A program made the position numbers and the translations under genes. DNA of 64,000 nucleotides from Anthopleura xanthogrammica (Eukaryota > Cnidaria > Anthozoa > Actiniaria > Actiniidae), in contig OZ025220.1 in assembly GCA_964019055.1 (NCBI GenBank), forward strand, positions 8,678,647 through 8,742,646, read 5' to 3'. Below are positions 591 to 58,676 of the stretch, piece after piece (the stretch's first letter is position 1; each line of letters begins with the position of its first letter). The notes beneath the pieces are model-generated. The model did no database searches, was not told the origin of the DNA, and was given only the letters and a program-made list of their open reading frames with translations.

Positions 591-3500
591 GAGAGAGTTT
601 AAGTTTCAAACTAAAGGTAAAGTTGATAATCTTCATGGCTGTTTATCCATGCGTTTAGTGCATTGCACATATCCACCCTTCACATCCTATGCAATCCCAT
701 CTCATACACTTTCATTCAGCCATTTCCAGCCATATCAGAGTCGCACTCCATTGCCTTCAAACAATTGTTTCAAGTCAAGGCAATTGGGTCAACATGTTGT
801 TGTTGACAAAAGCAATGATGCAATTGATCGTATGACAATAGTCCATGTTACCAAAAATTTCTTACACTCCATTACCTTGAAACAATTGAACAGCTCACTT
901 CATGTAGAGTCCATACTGAGAATATTGTCAGATGTATCATAGGCACTTTAATTATAATCAGTCCAGAAGTTATTTAAGGATTCAATAAAATTCCTTGGTG
1001 GTACTAACCCCTTAAAACTATTTCTTCTTCTTTTTACAGAACCTACTTACATCAATCCTCCTCCCTTTAAAGTGCCGTCAAACATTGAACACCGGAAACC
1101 GTTGTTTGGGAGAATGGAAATGGCATCACGTCTGTACCGTTCGGCGAGTCAAAAGCTTAAAGAGGATCATCGGGTTAATACACTCTTAACGTCGAAGAGC
1201 GCGGAAAACTTTAAGCAAGGACCACTCGAGGTTAGTGAGACTGGAGTAAGAATGATGTATTTGATGGTGTCTCATGTAATCTATTGTATTCTATGCATAC
1301 CCTACTCATCCATCCATCCATCCATCCATCCATCCATCCATCCATCCATCCATCCATCCATCCATCCATCCATCCATCCATCCATCCATCCATCCATCCA
1401 TCCATCCATCCATCCATCCATCCATCCATCCATCCATCCATCCATCCATCCATCCATCCATCCATCCATCCATCCATCCATCCATCCATCCATCCATCCA
1501 TCCATCCATCCATCCATCCATCCATCCATCCATCCATCCATCCATCCATCCATCCATCCATCCATCCATCCATCCATCCATCCATCCATCCATCCATCCA
1601 TCCATCCATCCATCCATCCATCCATCCATCCATCCATCCATCCATCCATCCATCCATCCATCCATCCATCCATCCATCCATCCATCCATCCATCCATCCA
1701 TCCATCCATCCATCCATCCATCCATCCATCCATCCATCCATCCATCCATCCATCCATCCATCCATCCATCCATCCATCCATCCATCCATCCATCCATCCA
1801 TCCATCCATCCATCCATCCATCCATCCATCCATCCATCCATCCATCCATCCATCCATCCATCCATCCATCCATCCATCCATCCATCCATCCATCCATCCA
1901 TCCATCCATCCATCCATCCATCCATCCATCCATCCATCCATCCATCCATCCATCCATCCATCCATCCATCCATCCATCCATCCATCCATCCATCCATCCA
2001 TCCATCCATCCATCCATCCATCCATCCATCCATCCATCCATCCATCCATCCATCCATCCATCCATCCATCTGATTTCTTTCTATGCTTTTAGTCTCTTTC
2101 AGCATCCTTATTACGGATTGGTCGCAAATTCACGAGAAATGACTGTAAATACTCTAGATTAAGTAGCTCAGAAGAAGATGACCCTGGAGGGACTACTTGT
2201 GCAGCACCATTGAGGTTAAGATCTCACGACGAGACTCTTTTTGAGAAGGATAAGAACAAAACAAAGAAGGATGTCAATAAGTTTCAAAACGAATGCGATG
2301 CAGAGGTAGGCTTGTCTTTATCTCTTATATCTAAGTCAGGGCATGGCTAGCTCACAGATTGAACCCCGACACAACCTCTGGGCTGATCTAAGTCAGGGCA
2401 CGGCTAACTCACAGATTGAACCCCGACACAACCTCTGGGCTGATCTAAGTCAGGGCGCGGGTAACTCACAAATCAAACCCTGAAACAACCTATGGACTGA
2501 TCTATGTCAGGGCATGGCTAACCCCCAGATCAAAATCAAAATCTACTCACATGCGATGCCATGTCCATGAATCGAACCAGAAACCCCGATATGAGAGGCC
2601 AGCGTACTACTGCTTCATCAGCCTTTGATTCCCTGAGAATCACATCCTACGTTATATGATCACCATACAAATATTGTTTTGCATTATAAGCTTACCTAAC
2701 GGTGCGCGCACGCGTTAAGCAGTACACGCACGTGTTGCACGTGATGTTTCTCGTAAAGTGTCAATGACTATTTCATTATTACCTCCAGGACATAATGCTT
2801 GCCATCCAAGAGTTCAACCAAGTGCGCCAAGTTCTTAGTCTTGATGGACCTGTCAGCACTGCTTTGGTCTACAAATTCCTCTATGCTCGAGATTACGATG
2901 TAGATGATGCCACGCGTCTGTACAAGAACTATTTGGTAAGCAATGAACCTGGTTACTGTACCCAACCCCCTCCCCCGTCATCCAAAACCGCGTAGAAAGA
3001 GGGACCGGCAAGGTATTCTCAGGAGATTGAATTTTTTTTGTTTTGTCCTCCAAATTGAACTGCTTTGTTGTCACGTGCTAGAGATCTATAGCCCACCACG
3101 TTTTGATAATAATATCTATGTGTGGGGTGGGGAAAGGGGAGAGATGACTTAGGTTGGACTGAAAAGGGGAAAAAATGGAATAACGTAGCACTAAGACTTG
3201 AGAATTTAGGTCTTAATTATTACCAAAACAATTTGCTGAATTTCAAAATGGCACCTCACTGTTTTTTTGTTTTGTTTTTTTATCTCCAGAGTCTTAGAAG
3301 AGTATATCACAATGCTGAGTTGAGTCCATTAAAGGATCCTCTACATCAGGAGCTCTACAGCGGAAGTTTTACAATACTGGTAAGAAGTTTATACTCCAAG
3401 ATTGTGACTTTTCCAATAGACCTCTTAAGCTTGGGCATAATGTTTTCCCATTTCAGACCATATGTCATTCTCTTGAGAATAAGATTCTTTGTTTGAGTTG

Positions 3501-5845
3501 TATCCATATTCATGTGTCTTCTCATGCACGACCGTTAAACAAAGAAATGATCCGCATCAGCCTTGGCGTAATGTTTTCCCATTTCAGACCACGTGTCATT
3601 CTCTTGAGAATAAGATTCTTTGTTTGAGTTGCATCCATATTCATGTGTCATCTCAAGCACAACCATTATACTTTGAATATTCTGATCCTAAAACCAGTCA
3701 TACTGATCAGTAATGGAATTGACACCTAGCGTTTGTTCTTAAAAAAAATCTAAATATGCCAACGAAGTGATGAGATTTGAAATTAAACAATTTCGAACGA
3801 AAAAACCTACTAGATTGTCAAGGATTCAGTGTGATACATCGCGCCACATAATTACTCACAACTCACAACGAAACTATGTACACTTCCTTATACATAGGGT
3901 AAACCAGTCAAACCTGTTTAGAACAAAAGAAATGACGCACTTCCGTAACAAACTCAAAACTCCTGAAAATCCTCTATGTTAGCCAACTTCGTTGGCAATA
4001 AGGCTAAACCCGAGTAGATTTGAGAAAATTCTAACTGATATCAACATGATGTTTGCACAGGATGTCCTCGATGAGAATGGAGCAGCTATTGCCGTCTTTA
4101 CGGCTCAGCTGCACAAGATAGACATAAGTCACGAGGTAGTTATGAACAACATCTACCTTCAGTTAGACGAAGCAATAAAAAGGTAACATTGTTTCTTAAA
4201 TTGCTTGGGTTACCTGTGGTTAAGTCTTATATAAGGCATTCCGAGGTTGAGGAAAAAATGGGTCGGGTGTCTTGTGGGAATGTTTGAATGACGAAATAGG
4301 CAATGTGCAGCAAGTCTCACAAAGCACCCTGGGAAAGTGAGTTCTTTAAAAATGTAACAGGGAAATCAAAGGAGCTATGTCCCCCAAAAACTCAAAATTG
4401 GTAATATCATTGGACTTCCTCAGCTAACAATTCTTATACATCATTCTTTTTTTAGCCTTGAGATCCAAAGAAAGGGGATTATACTCATCTATGACTTTTC
4501 CAACATCAGCTACAAGAATTGCGACGTCCATATCTGCCCCAAGATATTAGAGCTTTTTCAGGTGAGAATCTTTGTCTTTTTATTTTGAGGAGCAGATTAT
4601 GATACTCAGGAAAAATGACATGCAAAAATCGGATCAATGTAGAAGCGGAACTTTAACCCTGCGTTATTCGTAGTTAGCAGTGGCCAAAGCAAATGCAGTT
4701 CCTAGTATTGTGCCATTTTTACCTGTGCATGTTTGATGTTATGAATTGTCAACGTGCGCAAATGCGCGCGCATCTAGTACAAAAAAAATAGTTTGTAAAG
4801 TAGAACAGGGGTGCCCTTTACTGATAGAAGATTGTGCGACGGAAGTTCTAAGATCTTTGAGCAGAGATGAACGTCGCGAATATGATTGTGATGTTCCTCT
4901 ATGTTCCAAGATCTTAGAGCTTTTTCAGCTGAGGATCTTTTCTTTTTATCTTGAGGAGCAGAATTATGATACTCAGGAAAAAATGAGTAGAAAATATAAG
5001 AAAAATCACATGCAAAAATCGGATCAATCTAGAAGCGGAATTTTAATCGATAGAAGATTGTGCGACTGAAGTTACTAATGTGCGCACATTTGCGCACGCA
5101 TCTAATATAGATAAGATCGTGAACTAGGAAAGTTGCACACGTAACTAATAGAAGATTACGTGACGGAAGTAGCCAAAGTGCGTATATATGTGCGCTCATC
5201 TAATACAGATAAAATTGTGAACTAGGAAAGTTGCTCGCTTTACTAAAGGAAGATTGTTAGTACATCGGCTCTTCAAGAGAGCACAGAGAAAAAAGATTGC
5301 GTGACGGAAGATGTCAAAGCGCGCAAATGTGCGCATGCATTTAATATGTATATATAGTAAATACAGGCAAGCTGTGCGTGACGGAAGTAGCTTATAACAT
5401 TGAATGTCTTTTTTATCCACAGTCAGCATATCCTGTGCATCTAAAGAAAACCTACATCGTCTCACCACCTTTCTGGTTTGAGCCGGAAATGCGGCTATTT
5501 TCTGCTTCATTTCGTGACGCAAACATGAGGAAGAACATTCACATTGTCACGCAATCCAAACTTAAGACCCATCTACCTTTGACATGCATCCCAAGAGGCC
5601 TTGGTGGACAATGTGAGGCCAATCCAATGAGATTGATTAAACTATGTATAACATCGCATAAGGATCGTGTTGGCTTGGTGGAAAGCAATGCTGAAACCTC
5701 TGAAACCTCTGGTAAAGACGATACGATATCAAGTGATCAAGCTCAAATAAATGTTCTTGGAGGCGAAGGGCAAGACAAAGTTGAAAATGATTCCGAGGAT
5801 TCTAAAGACCTAGGTGACCCAAATGTTCAGACCAAGGACGTTTGA
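19..5845 (+). CDS. CRAL-TRIO (Sec14-type) domain protein, PTPN9/MEG2-like lipid-binding module; 5' partial
   Basis: Exons that join in phase: before 19-616, 1040-1230, 2093-2305, 2789-2935, 3290-3379, 4061-4182, 4456-4561 and 5423-5845 (stop TGA), giving at least about 630 residues. The first exon encodes tandem 20-residue Lys/Glu/Asp-rich repeats. Exons 2-3 are unrecognised basic and Ser/Glu-rich sequence. Exon 4 carries a CRAL-TRIO N-terminal helix bundle ([19 protein letters not shown]). Exons 5-8 form the lipid-binding fold ([13 protein letters not shown], then [10 protein letters not shown]). The order and spacing match the N-terminal Sec14 domain of PTPN9/MEG2, including an SGxFTIL strand and an LLD/QLD-type helix. 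In MEG2 this part binds phosphoinositides and directs the protein to vesicles. After the fold comes an acidic Ser/Glu/Asp tail and a stop, so no tyrosine phosphatase domain is present. AATAAA signals follow near 6007 and 6055. Domain call is firm; the MEG2 relationship is by-eye similarity. The true start lies upstream of the window. Confidence 0.82.
1303..2070. repeat. (CATC)n tetranucleotide microsatellite
   Basis: About 190 uninterrupted CATC units fill most of the intron between coding exons 1040-1230 and 2093-2305. Long open frames of Ser-Ile-His-Pro or Met-Asp-Gly-Trp type are artefacts of the repeat. Confidence 0.98.
2330..2640 (-). mobile_element. tRNA-derived SINE copy with internal ~58-bp tandem repeat
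   Basis: Three to four copies of a ~58-bp unit (containing gtcagggcatggctaactc) lie at 2330-2525. They are followed by sequence whose reverse complement holds GGTTCGATTC, a good RNA polymerase III B-box. The same unit in the opposite orientation follows an A/B-box head at 44.7 kb, so this copy is read as a minus-strand SINE inside an intron. Confidence 0.6.
3011..3094. mobile_element. Hairpin MITE family A, partial copy
   Basis: Contains the right arm of family A (TTTTGTCCTCCAAATTGAAC, then TCACGTG) and part of the centre. The left arm is missing. It sits in an intron. Confidence 0.7.
3431..3672. mobile_element. Repeat family B, two tandem arms
   Basis: Two direct copies (about 3431-3550 and 3561-3672) of a module starting ATGTTTTCCCATTTCAGACC and containing CTCTTGAGAATAAGATTC. 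Related copies occur near 14.03, 15.04, 22.6, 45.85 and 61.55 kb; the 45.85 kb copy is a full inverted repeat. Confidence 0.75.
4517..5045. repeat. Segmental duplication covering an exon end and its donor region
   Basis: The stretch 4517-4650 (3' end of CRAL-TRIO exon 4456-4561 plus intron) recurs diverged at about 4880-5042. Shared landmarks are TTAGAGCTTTTTCAG, TTGAGGAGCAGA and ATGATACTCAGGAAAAA. In the second copy the donor GT after TTTTTCAG reads CT and the frame is not usable, so it is a dead exon copy. Confidence 0.8.
4750..5350. repeat. Degenerate ~95-bp minisatellite in CRAL-TRIO gene intron
   Basis: Four diverged units start with a GTGCGCA..TGCGC core (about 4754, 5080, 5178 and 5318) and share GAACTAGGAAAGTTGC and GAAGATT..GTGACGGAAG blocks. 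They overlap the segmental duplication. Confidence 0.65.
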
Positions 5846-6747: not shown

Positions 6748-6810
6748 CTATTTTTTCCATGATATTTTGCCATCAATTCTCCTCCTAATATACACATATC
6801 TCTCATGCAT
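6310..6810. repeat. Degenerate tandem repeat overlapping the 3' end of the GT31 gene
   Basis: At least three copies of a 150-200 bp module, each with GGG/TTTCCTGTGGTGAGCT, a GATATTTTCCCATCTATT-like core, an ATACACATA box and TTTCATGCAT. The last copy (about 6728-6810) contains the C-terminal codons and stop of the glycosyltransferase, so its C-terminal HERYVYIRRRIDGKIS tail comes from the repeat. The neighbouring copy near 6380 encodes a similar peptide on the minus strand. Confidence 0.75.
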
Positions 6811-7875
6811 CTGTGTAATATAACTACTTTTCATCTGATCCCCAATACATACACTGTGTTTAAGTTTTTCCTCTGTATATTCAATAGCCAAAGCCCCATG
6901 CGATCCATCGAGTACAAACAGACTGTTCCCAACATTATAAGGCAGGACATAGTTTTCTTTTGTTATCACTCCCATATAGGCGTCCTCACCAGCTTCAATC
7001 CTAGGAGTTGTCTTGACAGAATCCACGAAACTTTTCAATACATTTGTCGAGAAAATATAAAACGCTCCCAGACAGTAGTTCGGTAAGACTTCTTGTTCTA
7101 GTTCTGCTTTTGTGCCTCCTTCTTGTTGTCGTTCATAATCATCTTCAGCTGGATGGCGGTACACTACATACCCAGCGTATAAATTTTTTGGTAGCTTTTC
7201 ATCATTGTTCAACCAATTGACCATCCTTGGTATATTGGCATAAACACCGTCTTCAACTTTGAATATATATTTCGTGTTCACTTCCAAAGCCCATTCGTAT
7301 GCTTTCCAAAGTTTCTCCACAACATTTGAATACATTTCTTCCATACCAGCACGAAAAATATCTCCTAAGATTTCCGCTTCTTGGGCAACTCTCCTCTCAT
7401 ACTTTGTTCTGTTGCTTAACCCAACTACAAAAATACAATTTGAGAAGAGTTTTGGATAGCCTCTTCCCTTGTACAACGACTTTGTAGCTTTGCCATTTTT
7501 CTTTGACCCTTTCCATGTATTTGCCCAAGTTGTTCGAATAAGATGTCGTCTCTCAAAGTTTTCGGGAACAGAATTCACCATAAATAGAACAAACATTTCT
7601 TTTTCCTCAAAAGCAGGACGAATTTCCAAGACATAGCTCGTCTTAGAATTATTAAAGTTAGTCGTAGTTCTGTTGAATTGAGGAAAAACTTCTTCGAACA
7701 TATCTTGTCCTTTTTCTTCGAGATCTTTTGCAGAAAGCAGTCTGTATGCCGTCACTTTCTTGGATCTTGATCTTTTAAAAAAGTTTATGTCGAAGAAATA
7801 ATGGAGAAAAAGAACTTCTGCGACAACGATAAGAAATATATAAAAAGCCATCCGCTTTTTGGAAACGTTAAACAT
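6748..7875 (-). CDS. GT31 beta-1,3-galactosyl/N-acetylglucosaminyltransferase-like type II membrane protein
   Basis: A single uninterrupted frame of about 375 residues. The chosen start (7875) has an A at -3 and places a basic N-terminus directly before a hydrophobic anchor (FYIFLIVVAEVLFLHYFF). An in-frame ATG upstream at 7986 has a poor context. GT31 blocks in order: RRHLIRTTWANTW, CIFVVGLS, EAEILGDIF, KYIFKVEDGVYANI (the DxD region), LYAGYVVY, YCLGAFYIFS and EAGEDAYMGVI (the EDVYVG motif). The family transfers Gal or GlcNAc in beta-1,3 linkage in the Golgi. The metal-binding motif reads EDG where a last Asp is usual, so activity may be altered. Acceptor and donor sugars cannot be read from sequence. 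The C-terminal ~20 residues derive from a local tandem repeat. Confidence 0.88.
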   Translation of the reverse strand: MFNVSKKRMAFYIFLIVVAEVLFLHYFFDINFFKRSRSKKVTAYRLLSAKDLEEKGQDMFEEVFPQFNRTTTNFNNSKTSYVLEIRPAFEEKEMFVLFMVNSVPENFERRHLIRTTWANTWKGSKKNGKATKSLYKGRGYPKLFSNCIFVVGLSNRTKYERRVAQEAEILGDIFRAGMEEMYSNVVEKLWKAYEWALEVNTKYIFKVEDGVYANIPRMVNWLNNDEKLPKNLYAGYVVYRHPAEDDYERQQEGGTKAELEQEVLPNYCLGAFYIFSTNVLKSFVDSVKTTPRIEAGEDAYMGVITKENYVLPYNVGNSLFVLDGSHGALAIEYTEEKLKHSVCIGDQMKSSYITQMHERYVYIRRRIDGKISWKK

Positions 7876-7995
7876 GGTTTTTGTGGATTTTTCAATTTGG
7901 TTCACGAAAAATGATCCAACTTTTTCAGATTCCAGTTTGCAGTTCAATATTATTATAATGTTGATATTTTGAAATACTTTTTTCATCAACTGCAA

Positions 7996-25569: not shown

Positions 25570-26059
25570 TATTGCGTTATTTTTAAGATTTCGGCATCAA
25601 AAAGTGGTTTTTTGAAGAAGATTTTGGCAAAGTTCTTCGTTATCAGACACGATGAAAATATTGAAAGAAACCGCCTCGTTTGAACCGACCAATCAGAACA
25701 CACCATGACGTCGCCTCATGACGCATGGCTAAATAGATACAAACTGCTGGCTCACGGGCTCAAGTTATTTTTATATCTATCCATATTTATATTTATTGCC
25801 ATTTATTATTTATTTATCATTAATTAATAAAATAGGCTAAAATTCTAAATTTTAAAAACTCTATCATAACAAAAGGTTTTAAAAATCAATGAAATATTTA
25901 AAAATAGTTTTTGGGGACTTCTTGAAGCTCCGTTGAAAGTACTATAAGTGAAAGTGGCAATTATGTACAAATGTTCAGATTTGATTCCACGTCCAGCAGA
26001 TTAAAAAAAATGAAATTTTTCTTACTGACTGTCTTTCGAGCTGTCTGTCCTGTCTATTT
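25570..26059. other. KIF23 promoter-side intergenic region
   Basis: 5' flank of KIF23. Contains ACGTCG and CCAAT-like ACCAATCAGAACA (25689-25701). No gene was seen to the microsatellite. Confidence 0.45.
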
Positions 26060-26712
<653 letters not shown>

Positions 26713-31400: not shown

Positions 31401-32155
31401 AATATATACGGGGAGCATTCACACAGACTAAGGAAGATGCTCTTTCTGAAATTTGACATTCTTAATTCGATAGAAGCAAAACCAACCTAAGGGATCATGA
31501 TGCGGCTTAATTCTGCAGTGTATGGCGTCGAGGGTTGTGATAAATATTGTATAGCATATCACATCTAAATTTTGAGTTATACGATTTAAAATTTATCAAA
31601 AATTCCCCGTTTATATGCATAACTTTACAACTACCTACGACCATTTGCGAGGTTTCGTGAGGCGTGACGCGACAAGGTTTTCAAAAGTTTATCGTTGCGC
31701 GTATGACGTCACTTTCATTGAATTGCTACCACTGACAGGAACGCATTCGTTTAATGGCGGACCGAAAATGCCGAACTTTACAGGCTAAATACAACATCTT
31801 CCCGGTCTCGTATCGAAATAAAAGTTTGACAATTAACTATATAACATGTCTACTTTTATAAGATATATTCTTTAGGGATAGTGTCATTTTCGTAAGACTA
31901 GCACTTTAATGTAGTTGTCCATATTGAATTTGTGCACAAACCCAAAATACAAGAGTCACCACCACCATCATCATCATTACAACGTCCTAGACTTACTTCA
32001 TCATAACATATAAAGTAATATATTAATGAAATTATTATTTATGATAGTGGTTGCCCTCCAATTCACATGACCTCCCCATCAGACCCATCAGACCATCATG
32101 AACCTTTGCAGTAAAAATGGTATTGAATTTATCTAATTTTCTAATTGCTTTTACT
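28471..32155. other. Intergenic region with dispersed repeats
   Basis: No convincing exon. 30530-31070 is a diverged copy of a repeat also at 38850-39060 (shared CAAATTTTCAGACGACTAAC and TTTGGTATTCTGTCTGCG) and partly at 22930-23190. ATGGCGGACC (YY1-like) lies at 31754 and TGACGTCA at about 31704, both possible promoter elements for the RNase L-like gene. Confidence 0.5.
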
Positions 32156-32222
32156 TTTAGACTTAGCTGAACAAAATAAAAGCAATTCCAAGAAGCTTCA
32201 ATCAAAGTATCCGCAATAATGT

Positions 32223-35200
32223 ATGATTAAGGGTAAACAGACGGCTGCATTGCAGACAAGTGCCCACTGCATGATGGCAGGAACAGGTAATCACCAAAAT
32301 GCTGTCGAGACTGACGTGAAATGGCCTTTGATTCAAGCTGTTAATAATCATGATAAAAGTGAAGTAGAGAGATTGATCAATGATGAAGGGGTTGATGTCA
32401 ATGAAGCTGATGCCCAGGGAAATACAGCTTTGCTGTGTGCAGTCCAGAGTAATGTTGACCTTCATATTATTGAAGTTTTAGTTGAAAAAGGTGGAGCTAA
32501 CGTTAATGCTCGAGAACGTTATACCCAAAGAACTTCTTTATTCTATGCCGTCACAAAATCAACAAAGACAGCTTCATATCTTTTTGAGAATAAAGATTGC
32601 TTCTTTAATGATTCTGTGGTCTCCAGCATCTTGTCATTTTTTATAGAGAGCCTTTGTACAAAAAGGCACGATTCTCATCCAACAATTGATGAGGTCTTAC
32701 CTCTGCTGCAAGCTAAAGGCCTAACGCCCGAAGTATTTGCTAAGTCAATAGTGAACATCTTGCTGTGCAAAATTCCTCTTCTTTTAACGTCTGCGATTGA
32801 TGGTCATCGACCCAGAAACTCACAACACCCAATGTTTCATTTGCACCGAAAAAGGAAATCGTTTTTAGATATCTTGAAGGACGTAAGCGGGTGTGATTAT
32901 CTCGAGAACTATCAAAGGAAGGAAAGCATCAAGGAGGTTTTGGAGATGATAGAATATAAGAGAAATATTTCAGATATTCTCCATTTGCTAAAGGAGCACG
33001 GTCCCGACCCCAACTTTGCTGATTCAGATGGCAATACTGCTCTTCACTATGCAACTTGTTTACCATGGATATGCATTCCTCAAGACACTGACGTCAAGGC
33101 AATATGTGAAGAGTTACAGAGCTTTGGAGTTCCGTTGAACAAAAAGAACCATCTATATGAAACACCCCTCTTGTTCTGCTTGTCTGGAAGCATAGCACAT
33201 TTAGAAGATGATGTTAAGTCAACAGCAATGAAGACATTGGTGGAAGTCTGCAACTTTCTAGTGACACGTGGATCAAGTTTAAACGAAACGCCCCAAAATG
33301 GAGAGTCCGTTTTTCACTTGGTCATTAAGCTTTTTCAGCAAGGTTTCAAAATACCCGATCAAAGAGTTAGAGAGGGTGTTATTGATGAAACAATGAACAT
33401 TTTGCATTTGTTTCAACGCCCGAATGTGGGCAACGTTGCTCGGGAAAGCGATGGTAATCACCATAATTCCCCACTTCATCTGTGGGCGTCGTTAGTATTA
33501 ACGACACCTGTTCAAGATTACACTAGAGTAACTCGAGAACATTCTTTTGAGACACTTTTGGAAGTTATATTGAGACATCTCTTAGAATGCGGTGCACTTA
33601 AGAATGGTAGAAACAAGAAGGAAGAAACTCCTCTACATCTGTGCAACACTTGGAGTGCAGTGAAGCTCTTAATCCATAATGGCGCAAACACAAACGATAA
33701 GGATTCATTGAAACGTCCACCTCTTCTTGTGGCAGCAAGCAAGCAAACGTTTAGGAATCCTTCTAAGGAAAAGAATCGTTTTTATCCAGATGTCCAAGAG
33801 GAAGCAGGCCCTTTTTTTAGAGCTGCTATTGAAAAGAAACTTGATCCATGGGCAGTTGACAAATGCCATAAGTCTGTTTTGGGTTTTCTTATTGCATTTG
33901 ACATCTATGATCTATCCAAAGCCTTAATCGAGGTTGCTTGTAGCTTGAAAGAGAAAGAAATCTTTGTTTCTCTGCTGAAGGCAATTTGCAAAGATGAATC
34001 TCTGCATACGCATTGGAAAGTTGAGCTTGTTGAAAAGGTTCTATCATGTGCAAAGGAAAGGAACATTAATGTAGTTAACGAAGCCTTTGACGTTTGCTGT
34101 GAAACTATATCACAATTGAGTGGTATGGTTGATGATGAGCCACCTCGTTCTAACGACGAAACATTTGAAGCGGAATCAGATGGTATGGTTGATGAGCCAA
34201 CTACTTCCAACCACGAAACAGCAGAGGAATCAAATGGTATAGTTGATGGGCCACCTACTTCCAACAACGGATCAGTTCTGAAAAATTCTGAAATTGAAAA
34301 CACCCCCCATTGCATGATTGCTAAAATGCTTCGTTCACATGGAGCTGAATTGTCAGGCAAATCCTATGAAACGCTAAAGACGAAATGTAACCAAATCGAA
34401 AAAATTCTGGGAGACATCCAAGTTGAAGTACTTCTTCCTTGGACGTCTAGATCAAAAACACATAAAAATACGCTAGACAAAGTTGCTAAGTGTCAAGAGT
34501 ACCAGGAAATTGGTGAGTCAATTTGTTGCCACAAGGATCCTGCAGCCGGGTCGTTTGGTGCTGATGTTTTTGTAGGAATCAACAAGCTGAATAGCAAAGA
34601 AGTGGCCATTAGGCGCATCGGGGAAACACAATGCAAACAAGAATTGAAGAATCTCTATGCTCATTTAGACTGTGAGCAAGTAATTCGTTATTTGCTTCAC
34701 TTAGAGGATAATGATGCCGACCTTTACATTGTTTTTGAACTGATGGAGGGTAATCTTGATGACTACTTCAATGATACTGCTGCCTTTGACCCCAAGAAAG
34801 GTACAAGTCTTTGTGGAGATATAGTTAAGGGGTTGAACTATTTGCACGAGCACAATTACATCAGCCATTTTCAGGATCATCTTAAGCCAACAAGCATTTT
34901 CTATAAAACACATCCTGAACTGTGCTTGAAAATCACCGACTTTGACCATAGCCGGCCCGAAACGTCTACCTATGTTTGTTTGTCACCAGAAGTGTTGACG
35001 AACCCTGAAAATCATTCCAATTCTTCTGACATGTTTTCTTGTGGGTTACTCCTGCGTCATATCTTGTCAAAAGGAAAGCATCCATTTTGTCCAGCTGATT
35101 GTACCAACAAAAGTGAAACGGACATCGTTTCCGAAACAGAACGTAACATAATAGAGAATGATAGGGAAATAGAGAACTCTCTTTCTCCTCCTGAAGCCGC

Positions 35201-35702
35201 AGATCTTTCTGAGTGGATGCTTGAAAATGTTAGTTCAAGGAGGCCAACTGGAGAAGAAGTACTTAATCATCCATTGTTCTGGTCCAAAACGAAAAAGATG
35301 GATTTTCTCGCCGCTGTTGGCAATCAAACAGAATTTGAATATCCACGTGCTGGAAGATCAGTTGTTTTGTCTGCTGTTGAGTCTGCATTGGAAGCACAGT
35401 TTAGTACCATAGTGGAGAATGCGGACTGGAATGTCCCAAGTTATGCACACATGCCTGATATTTACAATAAAATGGAAAGAAGAAGAAGGTACAAAACAAA
35501 CTCTGTAGTAGAATTAGTTCGCCTTATACGAAATGCTCATGCACACGTATCTGAATTACCAAAGCCAATACAAGATCAGTTGCTGAAACACTTTGTGTTC
35601 CTGGGACATTTCCCAAATCTTGTGATGGAAGTCTACAAGGCTGTAACCACTCATGGATGGCATAAGACGAAAGAAGAGATAAAGTACGCTATGAAGAAAT
35701 AA
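32223..35702 (+). CDS. RNase L-like protein: ankyrin-type repeats, pseudokinase, KEN endoribonuclease
   Basis: One frame of 1159 codons; the ATG at 32274 (codon 18, A at -3, G at +4) is the better-context start. A splice acceptor near 32160 suggests a 5' untranslated exon. The N-terminal half has diverged ankyrin-like units separated by long inserts (clearest: WPLIQAVNNHDKSEVERLI, DGNTALHYA, EETPLHLC). An acidic linker with three GMVDEP..TSN repeats follows (about residues 638-690). The kinase-like domain (about 755-1015) has a glycine loop GSFGADVF, VAIR in place of VAIK, HFQDHLKP in place of HRDLKP, and DFD in place of DFG. A KEN domain ends the protein (about 1040-1155; ELVRLIRNAHAH, ELPKPIQDQLL, FPNLVMEVYKAV). 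Its Arg-x4-His pair matches the catalytic pair of RNase L (R667/H672) and IRE1. Domain order and the DFD motif match vertebrate RNase L, the 2-5A-activated antiviral ribonuclease (741 residues in human). IRE1 differs by having a luminal domain and a membrane segment, which are absent here. Activating ligand is unknown. AATAAA follows near 35720. Confidence 0.9.
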   Translation: MIKGKQTAALQTSAHCMMAGTGNHQNAVETDVKWPLIQAVNNHDKSEVERLINDEGVDVNEADAQGNTALLCAVQSNVDLHIIEVLVEKGGANVNARERYTQRTSLFYAVTKSTKTASYLFENKDCFFNDSVVSSILSFFIESLCTKRHDSHPTIDEVLPLLQAKGLTPEVFAKSIVNILLCKIPLLLTSAIDGHRPRNSQHPMFHLHRKRKSFLDILKDVSGCDYLENYQRKESIKEVLEMIEYKRNISDILHLLKEHGPDPNFADSDGNTALHYATCLPWICIPQDTDVKAICEELQSFGVPLNKKNHLYETPLLFCLSGSIAHLEDDVKSTAMKTLVEVCNFLVTRGSSLNETPQNGESVFHLVIKLFQQGFKIPDQRVREGVIDETMNILHLFQRPNVGNVARESDGNHHNSPLHLWASLVLTTPVQDYTRVTREHSFETLLEVILRHLLECGALKNGRNKKEETPLHLCNTWSAVKLLIHNGANTNDKDSLKRPPLLVAASKQTFRNPSKEKNRFYPDVQEEAGPFFRAAIEKKLDPWAVDKCHKSVLGFLIAFDIYDLSKALIEVACSLKEKEIFVSLLKAICKDESLHTHWKVELVEKVLSCAKERNINVVNEAFDVCCETISQLSGMVDDEPPRSNDETFEAESDGMVDEPTTSNHETAEESNGIVDGPPTSNNGSVLKNSEIENTPHCMIAKMLRSHGAELSGKSYETLKTKCNQIEKILGDIQVEVLLPWTSRSKTHKNTLDKVAKCQEYQEIGESICCHKDPAAGSFGADVFVGINKLNSKEVAIRRIGETQCKQELKNLYAHLDCEQVIRYLLHLEDNDADLYIVFELMEGNLDDYFNDTAAFDPKKGTSLCGDIVKGLNYLHEHNYISHFQDHLKPTSIFYKTHPELCLKITDFDHSRPETSTYVCLSPEVLTNPENHSNSSDMFSCGLLLRHILSKGKHPFCPADCTNKSETDIVSETERNIIENDREIENSLSPPEAADLSEWMLENVSSRRPTGEEVLNHPLFWSKTKKMDFLAAVGNQTEFEYPRAGRSVVLSAVESALEAQFSTIVENADWNVPSYAHMPDIYNKMERRRRYKTNSVVELVRLIRNAHAHVSELPKPIQDQLLKHFVFLGHFPNLVMEVYKAVTTHGWHKTKEEIKYAMKK

Positions 35703-37038: not shown

Positions 37039-37429
37039 TTAAACTCCTGGGTTTAATTTTTCCTATAGAGCTTTTAAGTGTGACGTCAGTCGCATGGAAA
37101 AACGACTTCCGGGTCCAAAACGAAAAGCAGGTCTATAAACATTTTTCTTACTTTTTCTTCGTGACAGGATTTGTTGTCCAAAGTTCTAATTGTTTCAGTT
37201 GGAGGTTAAATCAGTTGCTTACAAGCAGTTGGACCCGGAAATACGTTTTATGCGTCACAACTTAAAGACAATATTTTACGTAGTTCACTCTAAATAGTGC
37301 ACTTTTAGACATTTTATAATCACATTTTTTTGTACTTCACAAGTATTCATATATGTGTACTTTATCAATCCAATAAAAAGATTATTAGTAATATTATCAT
37401 CATTATTATTACCATTGCCATTACCAACT

Positions 37430-37933
37430 ACCATTGCCATTACCATAACCATCACCATCACCATCACCATCACCACCACCATCACCACCACCACCACCAC
37501 CACCATCACCACCACCATCACCATCACCACCACCATCACCATCACCACCACCATCACCATCACCATCACCACCACCATCACCATCACCATCACCATCACC
37601 ATCACCATCACCATCACCATCACCATCACCATCACCATCACCATCACCATCACCATCACCATCACCATCACCATCACCATCACCATCACCATCACCATCA
37701 CCATCACCATCACCATCACCATCACCATCACCATCACCATCACCATCACCATCACCATCACCATCACCATCACCATCACCATCACCATCACCATCACCAT
37801 CACCATCACCATCACCATCACCATCACCATCACCATCACCATCACCATCACCATCACCATCACCATCACCATCACCATCACCATCACCATCACCATCACC
37901 ATCACCATCACCATCACCATCACCATCACCATT
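37430..37933. repeat. (CACCAT)n hexanucleotide microsatellite
   Basis: Pure CACCAT from about 37567 to 37932, preceded by interrupted CAT/CAC units. Poly-His, Thr-Ile and Met-Val frames are artefacts. Confidence 0.98.
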
Positions 37934-57028: not shown

Positions 57029-58676
57029 TCAGTTAGCATTCTTCCTCTGTTCAGGCGCCAAAATCACTTTCTCTTTATCCAACTCACACTTCTCCCCAGA
57101 AACAAACGAATTGACAGAAAACTGTCTCAGCCCAAGGATAACAGTACTGAAAGTACTACTCGATGTAAGAATAAAAAAATCGCATTCCACGAGCATAAGT
57201 TGGTCCATTAACAGATCCCTAAAGATTTCCTGATGACCAGATTTGCTAACGTCCAAGTGCTTAGGAATAATGTTAAGCGTGACTAGCTTATCGGGGTAAT
57301 CCTTTAGCGCTTGCTTTTTTAAATCGATATTATCAACCGCCAACACCCAAGTAAATTTCTTTTTTCTTAAGTTGAAGAATTTTTGTTGGAGAGCTTTTTC
57401 TACACGTTCAGCGCAGACAAATACGCGTTTTGTGTCTTTTGTTCGTACACTGAGCGGATTGTTACTACCAAACTGGTAATCGCTGGTGCGTAAATGAATC
57501 CCAATCAGAGGCCCATCTCTTTTCGTGTCCAGCTCTGACTTCACTTTATTAAACTCTCTCATTAATGTTTTTGATTTCTTGAACAGAAAATTCATTGCGC
57601 ACCCAATCATGCTATAAGGGTAGCTATTCTTTTTCATTGGTAGTCCAATTTCTTTTGCTCGTGTCTTTAGGTGAGGGTTGTCCCATAGTTTATCAGCAAA
57701 GTACCATATAGTGGCCAGGTTCTCTACTGGAAAATTTAGGTAAGAATTGAAGTTAACTCCTTGACTCCAGTGTAGAAAGTTCCCCTCTCTTGCAGCATGA
57801 AAATGATCATAACCAGCTATCCTTTCCAGCCCCCAGTATCCCTTCCTGGACTTCATTTCCTGGAATTTGAACTCATTATAAGTCCAGTCTATCTTATTGG
57901 GTTGTAAATAGGTTTCGAGTAGTTCTGGTCCGCCCCAGTGAATCATAAACGTCCTATTTAGGAGAACCGCTAAGTAGAACACAGATACCAGACCAATCAT
58001 CCTGTTGCCATAGCCACCACAGCCACCACTGTGACCTGCGCAGTAGTAGATTAGGAATTTTCTGTCCTTGCTTTGGGAGTTAAGACTGTTGGCATGGTAA
58101 CGGATGTAATCTTGTTTCCATTTGCCGTCGCACGTGAAGGTTTTGGAGGTGTGAAAAAGGTTGTCTTGGGAGGAACCAGTGTCTTGGGGAAAAAAAAGAA
58201 AACAAAAAGAAAAATTTAAGAGAAAAAATAATAGAAATTGCTATGGTACGATAAAATTTCTGAGTAGTGACAATGGTACTGCACATGCTTGAAAAATATG
58301 GCGGGAAAATGGTGGACCATTCTCATTCTATGAGCCCGCGTTAACTTCGGTCTTCGACTTAGCGAGCTAGCTGCAGTTAAAACGAAGAACTCTTGGCGTA
58401 TCAAATATTGACACTATGTTTTGATTGGCAATTAAAGCAGCAGTAAAAACAATGTTATACTTTCTTTGCTTTAAGATACAATGTCATTTTTTCTAAATAT
58501 ATTTTCATTCTATATGTTCTATCGCTTTTATCTGACGTGGGCTCCCTGTGGTAAAACTTCTTGTACATACCAAATAAATCGAGTAGATATGTAAGATATT
58601 CTGGCCGGGTTATGAAGGTTATCAGTAATATCAGCACTGCTCCAACAACCAAGACAAAATTCTTCTTTAAGGCCAT
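57029..58676 (-). CDS. Fucosyltransferase-like type II membrane protein
   Basis: Two exons join in phase: 58571-58676 (ATG) and 57029-58182, 419 residues. Exon 1 is a short basic start plus an anchor (FVLVVGAVLILLITFI). Exon 2 begins with a Cys-containing stem (FTCDGKWKQDYIRYHA), then a GGCGGYGNRMIGLVSVFYLA block that resembles the glycine-rich nucleotide-sugar region of NodZ/alpha-1,6- and O-fucosyltransferases, RTFMIHW, the basic motif IGIHLRTSDYQ (family HxR pattern), and DFFILTSSSTFSTVILGLR near the end, the usual C-terminal donor-binding segment. These point to a GDP-fucose-using enzyme in the Golgi. The exact GT family and acceptor cannot be fixed by eye. AATAAA on the minus strand near 56952 fits its 3' end. 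Confidence 0.72.

What the first reader, a model, noticed from the sequence alone, without database searches (positions are those of the whole stretch)
32223..35702. RNase L-like ankyrin-pseudokinase-KEN ribonuclease in a probable cnidarian
Seen: one 1159-codon frame with ankyrin-like units, a kinase-like domain and a C-terminal KEN domain that keeps the Arg-x4-His catalytic pair. Known: this order defines RNase L, effector of the vertebrate OAS/2-5A antiviral pathway; the related IRE1 has a luminal sensor and a membrane segment, neither present here. Inference: an invertebrate oligonucleotide- or other ligand-triggered RNA-cleaving immune system may exist. If the host also has OAS-like enzymes, a 2-5A-type pathway would predate vertebrates.
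Basis: partly seen in the sequence, partly recalled or inferred. Interest (0 to 1): 0.93.

Follow-up and report, generated by a model that had tools for sequence, protein, structure and literature searches.

The report
Sea-anemone RNase L-like RNA-cutting enzyme
A sea anemone gene encodes a relative of the vertebrate antiviral enzyme RNase L, part of a very large family in this animal's genome, which also holds genes of the OAS type that make RNase L's trigger in vertebrates; this suggests that the parts of this antiviral RNA-cutting system may be older than vertebrates.

Summary
ORF 32223-35702 (+) encodes ankyrin repeats, a kinase-like domain and a KEN RNase domain with Arg1103-x4-His1108. 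The host looks like an anemone related to Actinia, whose orthologue is 61% identical over 99% of the length. The gene belongs to an anthozoan ankyrin-kinase-KEN family. The host genome has 79 KEN matches: two lie in a canonical intron-bearing IRE1 gene; 56 of the 79 sit in open frames of over 1000 codons.

Of 164 family rows (window included) 161 keep the tested kinase motifs. Only the window gene and its Actinia orthologue have DFG changed to DFD; vertebrate RNase L carries the same DFD. One shared pseudokinase clade is rejected (AU p 8e-5), so this is convergent. KEN stays conserved while the kinase diverges. The joint tree places the family with vertebrate RNase L outside animal and fungal IRE1 (97/92), with long branches.

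The same genome carries an OAS cluster (15 matches); the one locus read keeps the expected acidic residues. RNase L's 2-5A contact residues are not recognisable in the ankyrin units scanned, so 2-5A as ligand is unproven.

Best reading: a cytosolic ankyrin-gated RNase. New variant of a known kind. No structure was obtained.

The parts
32223..35702 (+). single open coding frame, ankyrin-pseudokinase-KEN protein (1159 codons; likely true start Met18 at 32274)
32319..32597 (+). N-terminal ankyrin units, residues 33-125
   Evidence: Pfam Ank_2 36-125, Ank_4 38-87; PDB ankyrin matches
32970..33152 (+). ankyrin-like units, residues about 250-310
   Evidence: PDB ankyrin matches 250-278 and 250-311
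33435..33842 (+). third ankyrin-like stretch, residues about 405-540
   Evidence: SPLHLW / ETPLHL units by eye and by motif scan; weaker than the first two
34133..34269 (+). 54-base tandem repeat (about 2.5 copies) coding an acidic linker between ankyrin part and pseudokinase
34548..35279 (+). kinase-like domain, residues 776-1019, motifs degraded (VAIR, ISHFQDHLKPTS, DFD)
34938..34946 (+). DFD at the DFG site (residues 906-908), same change as vertebrate RNase L (Asp505 there)
   Evidence: PMC4718504 passage
35298..35660 (+). KEN ribonuclease domain, residues 1026-1146
   Evidence: PF06479 E 1e-15
35319..35327 (+). G-N-Q (1033-1035) where IRE1 has S-D-R and RNase L has G-N-E
35529..35546 (+). 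catalytic R1103, N1104 ... H1108
32149..32160 (+). possible 3' splice site (TTTTACTTTTAG) in the 5' untranslated region
   Evidence: read from sequence printed; not verified

Best explanation
A cytosolic, ankyrin-gated endoribonuclease of the RNase L type. Shown by sequence: an ankyrin part, a kinase-like domain with lost catalytic motifs, and a KEN domain with its catalytic residues, in one conserved protein of a large anthozoan family. Inferred: a ligand (small molecule, nucleic acid or protein) binds the ankyrin part; the dead kinase acts as dimer scaffold; two KEN domains pair and cut single-stranded RNA, stopping translation or killing an infected cell. Inferred with moderate support: the family descends from an ankyrin-kinase-KEN gene shared with the ancestor of vertebrate RNase L. 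Most anthozoan copies keep IRE1-like kinase motifs; this lineage lost them independently, ending at the same DFD as RNase L.
For: Architecture and catalytic pair. Orthologue and family. Tested kinase motifs kept in 161 of 164 rows; DFD only in window and P0001. KEN R and H in 61 of 61 complete units of the host genome, three of them with broken kinase motifs. Kinase identity of the pseudokinase pair to six motif-intact Actinia paralogues is 44-50% (12 comparisons) against 57-75% among those six (15 pairs); KEN identity is 53-76% against 57-78%: KEN is kept while the kinase drifts. Tree: family + RNase L 97/92; family with animal IRE1 p 0.0043; RNase L with animal IRE1 p 0.0041. S-D-R in 10 of 10 IRE1 rows, G-N-E in 5 of 5 RNase L, N then Q or E in 142 of 164 family rows. 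OAS1_C cluster in the genome; S-D-L-D and V-D-L-L-P at the one locus read. Close own paralogues: median dN/dS 0.31 kinase, 0.37 KEN in 44 of 64 pairs that passed dS limits.
Against: Stem branches of RNase L (2.0) and of the family (1.0) are long, so their union may be attraction. With either group alone, a place beside human IRE1 is not rejected (p 0.126, 0.199), nor with kinase or KEN columns alone (p 0.145-0.224), nor a place with animal plus yeast IRE1 (p 0.064, 0.075). In one search an unplaced protein (P0169) fell inside the union. Across, more fixed columns pair the family with IRE1 (12) than with RNase L (3). By plain sequence score the closest solved structures to kinase-KEN are IRE1, not RNase L. 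KEN Arg is missing in 4 of 164 rows (two gaps, one His, one Lys). 2-5A contacts not found. No structure, expression or activity data. One hydrophobic stretch (171-189) scores as high as the most hydrophobic stretch of the IRE1-like P0173 in a crude scan, so a membrane segment is not strictly excluded.
Confidence: 0.62

Rival explanations
1. Independent assembly: an IRE1 duplicate (perhaps a retrocopy, since the copies lie mostly in single open frames) gained ankyrins in Anthozoa; resemblance to RNase L in architecture, DFD and the GN motif is convergence.
For: Long single open frames while the host IRE1 matches in eleven separate pieces; separate trees do not reject attachment to human IRE1; DFD itself is convergent; best sequence scores to IRE1; 12 fixed columns shared with IRE1 against 3 with RNase L.
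Against: Joint tree 97/92 and AU p 0.0043 against kinship with animal IRE1; N at the SDR site shared with RNase L.
Confidence: 0.27
2. A true 2-5A receptor: the protein binds 2-5A made by the host's OAS cluster and works as an RNase L pathway.
For: OAS1_C cluster, one locus with the expected acidic residues, in the same genome; OAS1 and an RNase L homologue named among Nematostella poly(I:C)-response genes (PMC8476169 passage).
Against: Contact signature not found in the window's recognisable ankyrin units; none of 164 rows holds both halves; this gene is one derived paralogue in a large family.
Confidence: 0.15
3. Decaying or non-catalytic member: a pseudogene in the making or a regulator of other paralogues by heterodimerisation.
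For: Kinase motifs lost; lowest identity among the best own hits of 8 Actinia proteins (64% against 71-89%); the window's KEN identities lie towards the low end of the range.
Against: Frame intact in two genera, KEN catalytic residues complete, KEN identities overlapping those among motif-intact paralogues. Heterodimerisation is not excluded.
Confidence: 0.12

Closest known systems
Vertebrate RNase L (2-5A-dependent ribonuclease)
   Same: Domain order ankyrin-pseudokinase-KEN; DFD at the DFG site; R-N-x3-H; no luminal domain found; joins the anthozoan family in the joint tree
   Different: Part before the kinase about 745 residues, against about 335 in RNase L; HRD also broken; 2-5A contact residues not recognisable; pseudokinase arose separately; large gene family
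IRE1 (ERN1)
   Same: Kinase-KEN unit and KEN catalytic residues; closest solved structures by sequence score
   Different: No luminal sensor found; ankyrins; G-N-Q instead of S-D-R; the host has a separate canonical multi-piece IRE1 gene
Anthozoan ankyrin-kinase-KEN proteins (database names: uncharacterized protein; ankyrin repeat subunit; TNNI3K-like)
   Same: Same family; 34-61% identity in hits covering at least 97% of the query
   Different: Nearly all keep kinase motifs; window and P0001 do not

Membership tests
RNase L | N-terminal ankyrin repeats | tested here: met
   Pfam Ank models over cut-off; fold not modelled
RNase L | Pseudokinase with DFD | tested here: met
   VAIR, broken HRD, DFD; convergent by AU test
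RNase L | KEN with R-x4-H | tested here: met
RNase L | 2-5A contact residues in ankyrin repeats 2 and 4 (residue numbers recalled) | tested here: not met
   3 of 3 RNase L controls positive, window negative in its five recognisable units; degenerate repeats are not seen by the scan
RNase L | Groups with vertebrate RNase L to the exclusion of IRE1 | tested here: inconclusive
   97/92 jointly; alternatives not rejected when each group is tested alone
RNase L | Activated by 2-5A; cuts single-stranded RNA; antiviral | not testable with these tools
   needs biochemistry
IRE1 | Luminal sensor, signal peptide and membrane segment | tested here: not met
   No luminal family in the Pfam scan, no hydrophobic N-terminus; the membrane-segment scan alone is inconclusive
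IRE1 | Active kinase motifs (K, HRD, DFG) | tested here: not met
IRE1 | Tree position with animal IRE1 | tested here: inconclusive
   Rejected jointly, AU p 0.0013, 0.0076, 0.0043; not rejected without RNase L, p 0.126

The most novel reading that the evidence does not exclude
Sea anemones run a large repertoire of some 75 ankyrin-sensing RNA-cutting enzymes, a diversified intracellular immune-receptor family whose output is a KEN RNase, beside a tandem OAS cluster. An ankyrin-kinase-KEN effector therefore existed in the cnidarian-bilaterian ancestor, and vertebrate RNase L is its single-copy survivor; loss of kinase activity through DFG to DFD happened twice.
Probability: 0.45. Interest if true: 0.88.

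Novelty: new variant of a known kind. Interest (0 to 1): 0.76.

Why it matters
A 2018 study reported that Nematostella, two corals and other non-vertebrates have OAS but no RNase L, and concluded that the OAS/RNase L pathway is absent there (PMC6307210, passages). This genome holds OAS-type genes together with a very large ankyrin-kinase-KEN family, which makes the origin of the pathway directly testable in a living animal. The paralogues with intact kinase motifs are candidate intermediates between IRE1 and RNase L, and the repeated DFG to DFD change offers a natural experiment on why RNase L lost its kinase.

Tried and rejected
One pseudokinase clade with RNase L: rejected. Second KEN copy inside the window: none found; the tblastn hits of 11 relatives, E up to 1e-3, all fall on this frame. 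A first, looser scan for 2-5A contacts (it listed 39 and 2 spurious matches) and a mis-spaced one were replaced by that, which recovers both contact repeats in all three controls. Counting fixed columns gave 3 for family+RNase L, 12 for family+IRE1 and 3 for RNase L+IRE1; I think the 12 mostly reflect the fast RNase L branch, but that is inference, and two of the 3 rest on plant IRE1 rows; I lean on the SDR site only. Residue numbers printed are 2 too high; those here follow. The HRD site of the window reads QDH and SHH because of a two-residue insertion; the sequence is ISHFQDHLKPTS. The identity ranges rested on 4 of the possible pairs of motif-intact paralogues; redid all 15 pairs of six. 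Rfam on the window: nothing at gathering score. A motif pattern for OAS gave no hit; I read the motif by eye from a frame listed there. Paper searches; neither the listings nor the passages that I read describe this family or its size; an RNase L homologue is named in one list (PMC8476169). Passages in PMC11251625, PMC4419793, PMC5094078, PMC12314368 and PMC11797021 added nothing on RNase L in cnidarians. STING (PF15009) and cGLR (PF03281) in the host genome: not completed.
Full report
WHAT IS THERE. The frame 32223-35702 (+) belongs to a stop-free run of 1160 codons; 20 shuffles of the window reach at most 180. Pfam finds ankyrin repeats, a protein kinase domain (776-1019) and Ribonuc_2-5A, the KEN domain (1026-1146), all over cut-off. 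The first protein search found a collinear Actinia tenebrosa protein, 61% identical over 99% of the query, and further relatives at 34-42% over at least 97% of it (480 hits, best 120 listed, most of the lower ones ankyrin proteins only). The protein probably starts at Met18 (32274), opposite residue 1 of P0001. The window shows one copy only. Of ten other frames scanned, four have a Pfam match, none unusual.

FAMILY. Searches with the kinase-KEN part of the window protein (76 hits) and of a coral protein (2560 hits, best 120 listed) show relatives in anemones (Actinia, Exaiptasia, Actinostola), octocorals (Dendronephthya, Paramuricea) and stony corals (Desmophyllum, Stylophora, Montipora, Porites, Acropora, Oculina). 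I call the 164 rows anthozoan because a sample of 30 of them, named and unnamed, formed one clade; near-copies among them are not independent. No Nematostella name appeared among the listed hits, which says little because most rows are unnamed.

KINASE LOSS. Of 164 rows (window included), 161 keep the beta3 lysine, the HRD aspartate and the D and G of DFG; other kinase positions were not part of this count. The three that fail are the window protein (R, H, DFD), P0001 (K, H, DFD) and P0229, which differs only by Glu for the HRD Asp. Vertebrate RNase L has DFD in 5 of 5 rows; a review notes Asp505 of RNase L at this site, contacting a cation (PMC4718504, passages). Forcing window, P0001 and RNase L into one clade costs 36.7 log units, AU p 8e-5. 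So the DFD state is convergent. Against six motif-intact Actinia paralogues the pseudokinase pair has kinase identity 44-50% (12 comparisons); the six among themselves have 57-75% (15 pairs). KEN identity is 53-76% and 57-78%. The KEN domain is held, the kinase is not. The KEN pair: Arg in 160 of 164 (two gaps, one His, one Lys), His in 162 of 164 (two gaps). The human RNase L row taken from PDB 4oau has Asn at the catalytic His, which I take for an engineered change.

HOST GENOME. The window lies at C15:8678647-8742646 of a 289.8 Mb assembly. PF06479 matches 79 places, all over the curated cut-off and without a stop inside; 56 of the 79 lie in open frames of over 1000 codons. Two of the 79 (C18, 6.10 Mb) belong to a canonical IRE1 gene that matches human IRE1 in eleven pieces at 38-92% identity (the low ones run into introns) and has the S-D-R motif. 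The others cluster; sixteen lie between 8.38 and 9.00 Mb of C15, the window gene among them. From 77 fetched loci I extracted 61 complete kinase-KEN units, the window's included; 27 further partial hits (frame breaks, fetch edges, IRE1 exons) were not counted. KEN Arg and His are present in 61 of 61, Asn in 60. Three units have broken kinase motifs: the window's, L022 and L069; a fourth (L058) has DLG. So the count of intact genes is at least 60 and the matches outside IRE1 are 77; 'about 75' is a round figure that includes copies with broken frames. Three paralogues scanned carry long ankyrin arrays before kinase and KEN (other Pfam names in that table match inside the ankyrin array and I ignore them). 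Of 64 close pairs, 44 passed limits on dS; median dN/dS is 0.42 upstream of the kinase, 0.31 kinase, 0.37 KEN, so copies are under constraint; one pair exceeds 1 in KEN. Among the 61 units the window gene has no close paralogue (nearest 53%) and is the best match of P0001.

OAS. PF10421 (OAS1_C) matches 15 places, all within C3:8.516-8.688 Mb; four of the 15 contain a stop inside the match. At the one locus read, one frame holds G-G-S-L-G-K-G-T...S-D-L-D and V-E-V-D-L-L-P, the acidic residues expected of an active OAS (motif recalled; read by eye). STING and cGLR searches did not complete.

PHYLOGENY. With the host IRE1 included, human and anemone IRE1 join at 100/100 and with yeast at 97/92; the anthozoan family and vertebrate RNase L join at 97/92. 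Family with animal IRE1: p 0.0043; RNase L with animal IRE1: p 0.0041; all animal sequences as one clade: p 0.039; RNase L or family with animal plus yeast IRE1: p 0.075 and 0.064. Two earlier trees agree in the main, 99/99 with P0169 inside the union and 95/89; kinase-only, KEN-only and single-group trees do not reject the alternatives. IRE1 sampling is thin (human, host anemone, yeast, plants, one unnamed protist-like protein). The stems are long. I put common origin at about 0.65. The S-D-R of 10 of 10 IRE1 rows is G-N-E in 5 of 5 RNase L and has N then Q or E in 142 of 164 family rows.

LIGAND. Vertebrate RNase L contacts 2-5A through W60/K89 and F126/E131/Y135/R155 (numbers recalled). A scan that recovers these in all three RNase L controls finds neither in the five recognisable units of the window protein; of 164 rows (981 units) none has both halves and one unit fits the first half loosely. 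Degenerate repeats are not covered. So 2-5A binding in the RNase L manner is not supported here; another mode or another oligonucleotide is possible.

LITERATURE (all seen as passages). PMC6307210: OAS present but RNase L not found in Nematostella, two corals and other non-vertebrates. PMC8476169: RNase L and OAS1 homologues named among Nematostella genes in the poly(I:C) response. PMC13319465 and PMC12530282: OAS1 in Nematostella immune cells and in heat stress. PMC3710099: KEN fused to kinase, with ankyrins in some. None of these passages describes the expanded family.

VERDICT. The finding is real and larger than reported. It is a new variant of a known kind: built like RNase L, not shown to be a 2-5A receptor.

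Noticed in passing
G000 (whole genome): 79 KEN matches; 77 outside IRE1, mostly in long open frames and in clusters.
   Followed up: yes
G000:C3:8516523-8688008: Cluster of 15 OAS1_C matches; three pairs have equal scores, two of them on opposite strands.
   Followed up: partly
L033 1-9157 (G000:C1:27345000-27354156): One 1604-codon frame holds two kinase-KEN units in a row; an Exaiptasia protein (P0121) also has two.
   Followed up: no
L022 and L069: Two further paralogues with broken HRD and DFG sites but complete KEN catalytic residues.
   Followed up: partly
G000:C15:8410638-8411012 and 8439750-8440124: Equal-scoring KEN copies 29 kb apart, with a second equal pair beside them: recent segmental duplication or assembly duplication.
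   Followed up: no
P0169 (729 aa, unnamed source): Kinase-KEN protein without listed ankyrin matches that has V-G-N-Q and falls near RNase L on a long branch.
   Followed up: partly
window 34133-34269: 54-base tandem repeat inside the frame coding the acidic linker before the pseudokinase.
   Followed up: no
window 5378-5842 (+), 6751-7995 (-), 57032-58000 (-): CRAL/TRIO match, galactosyltransferase, and a fucosyltransferase match below the curated cut-off.
   Followed up: no
window 1307-2070, 26041-26711, 37408-37933: Long CATC, CTGT and CCATCA microsatellites overlapping several of the long frames.
   Followed up: no
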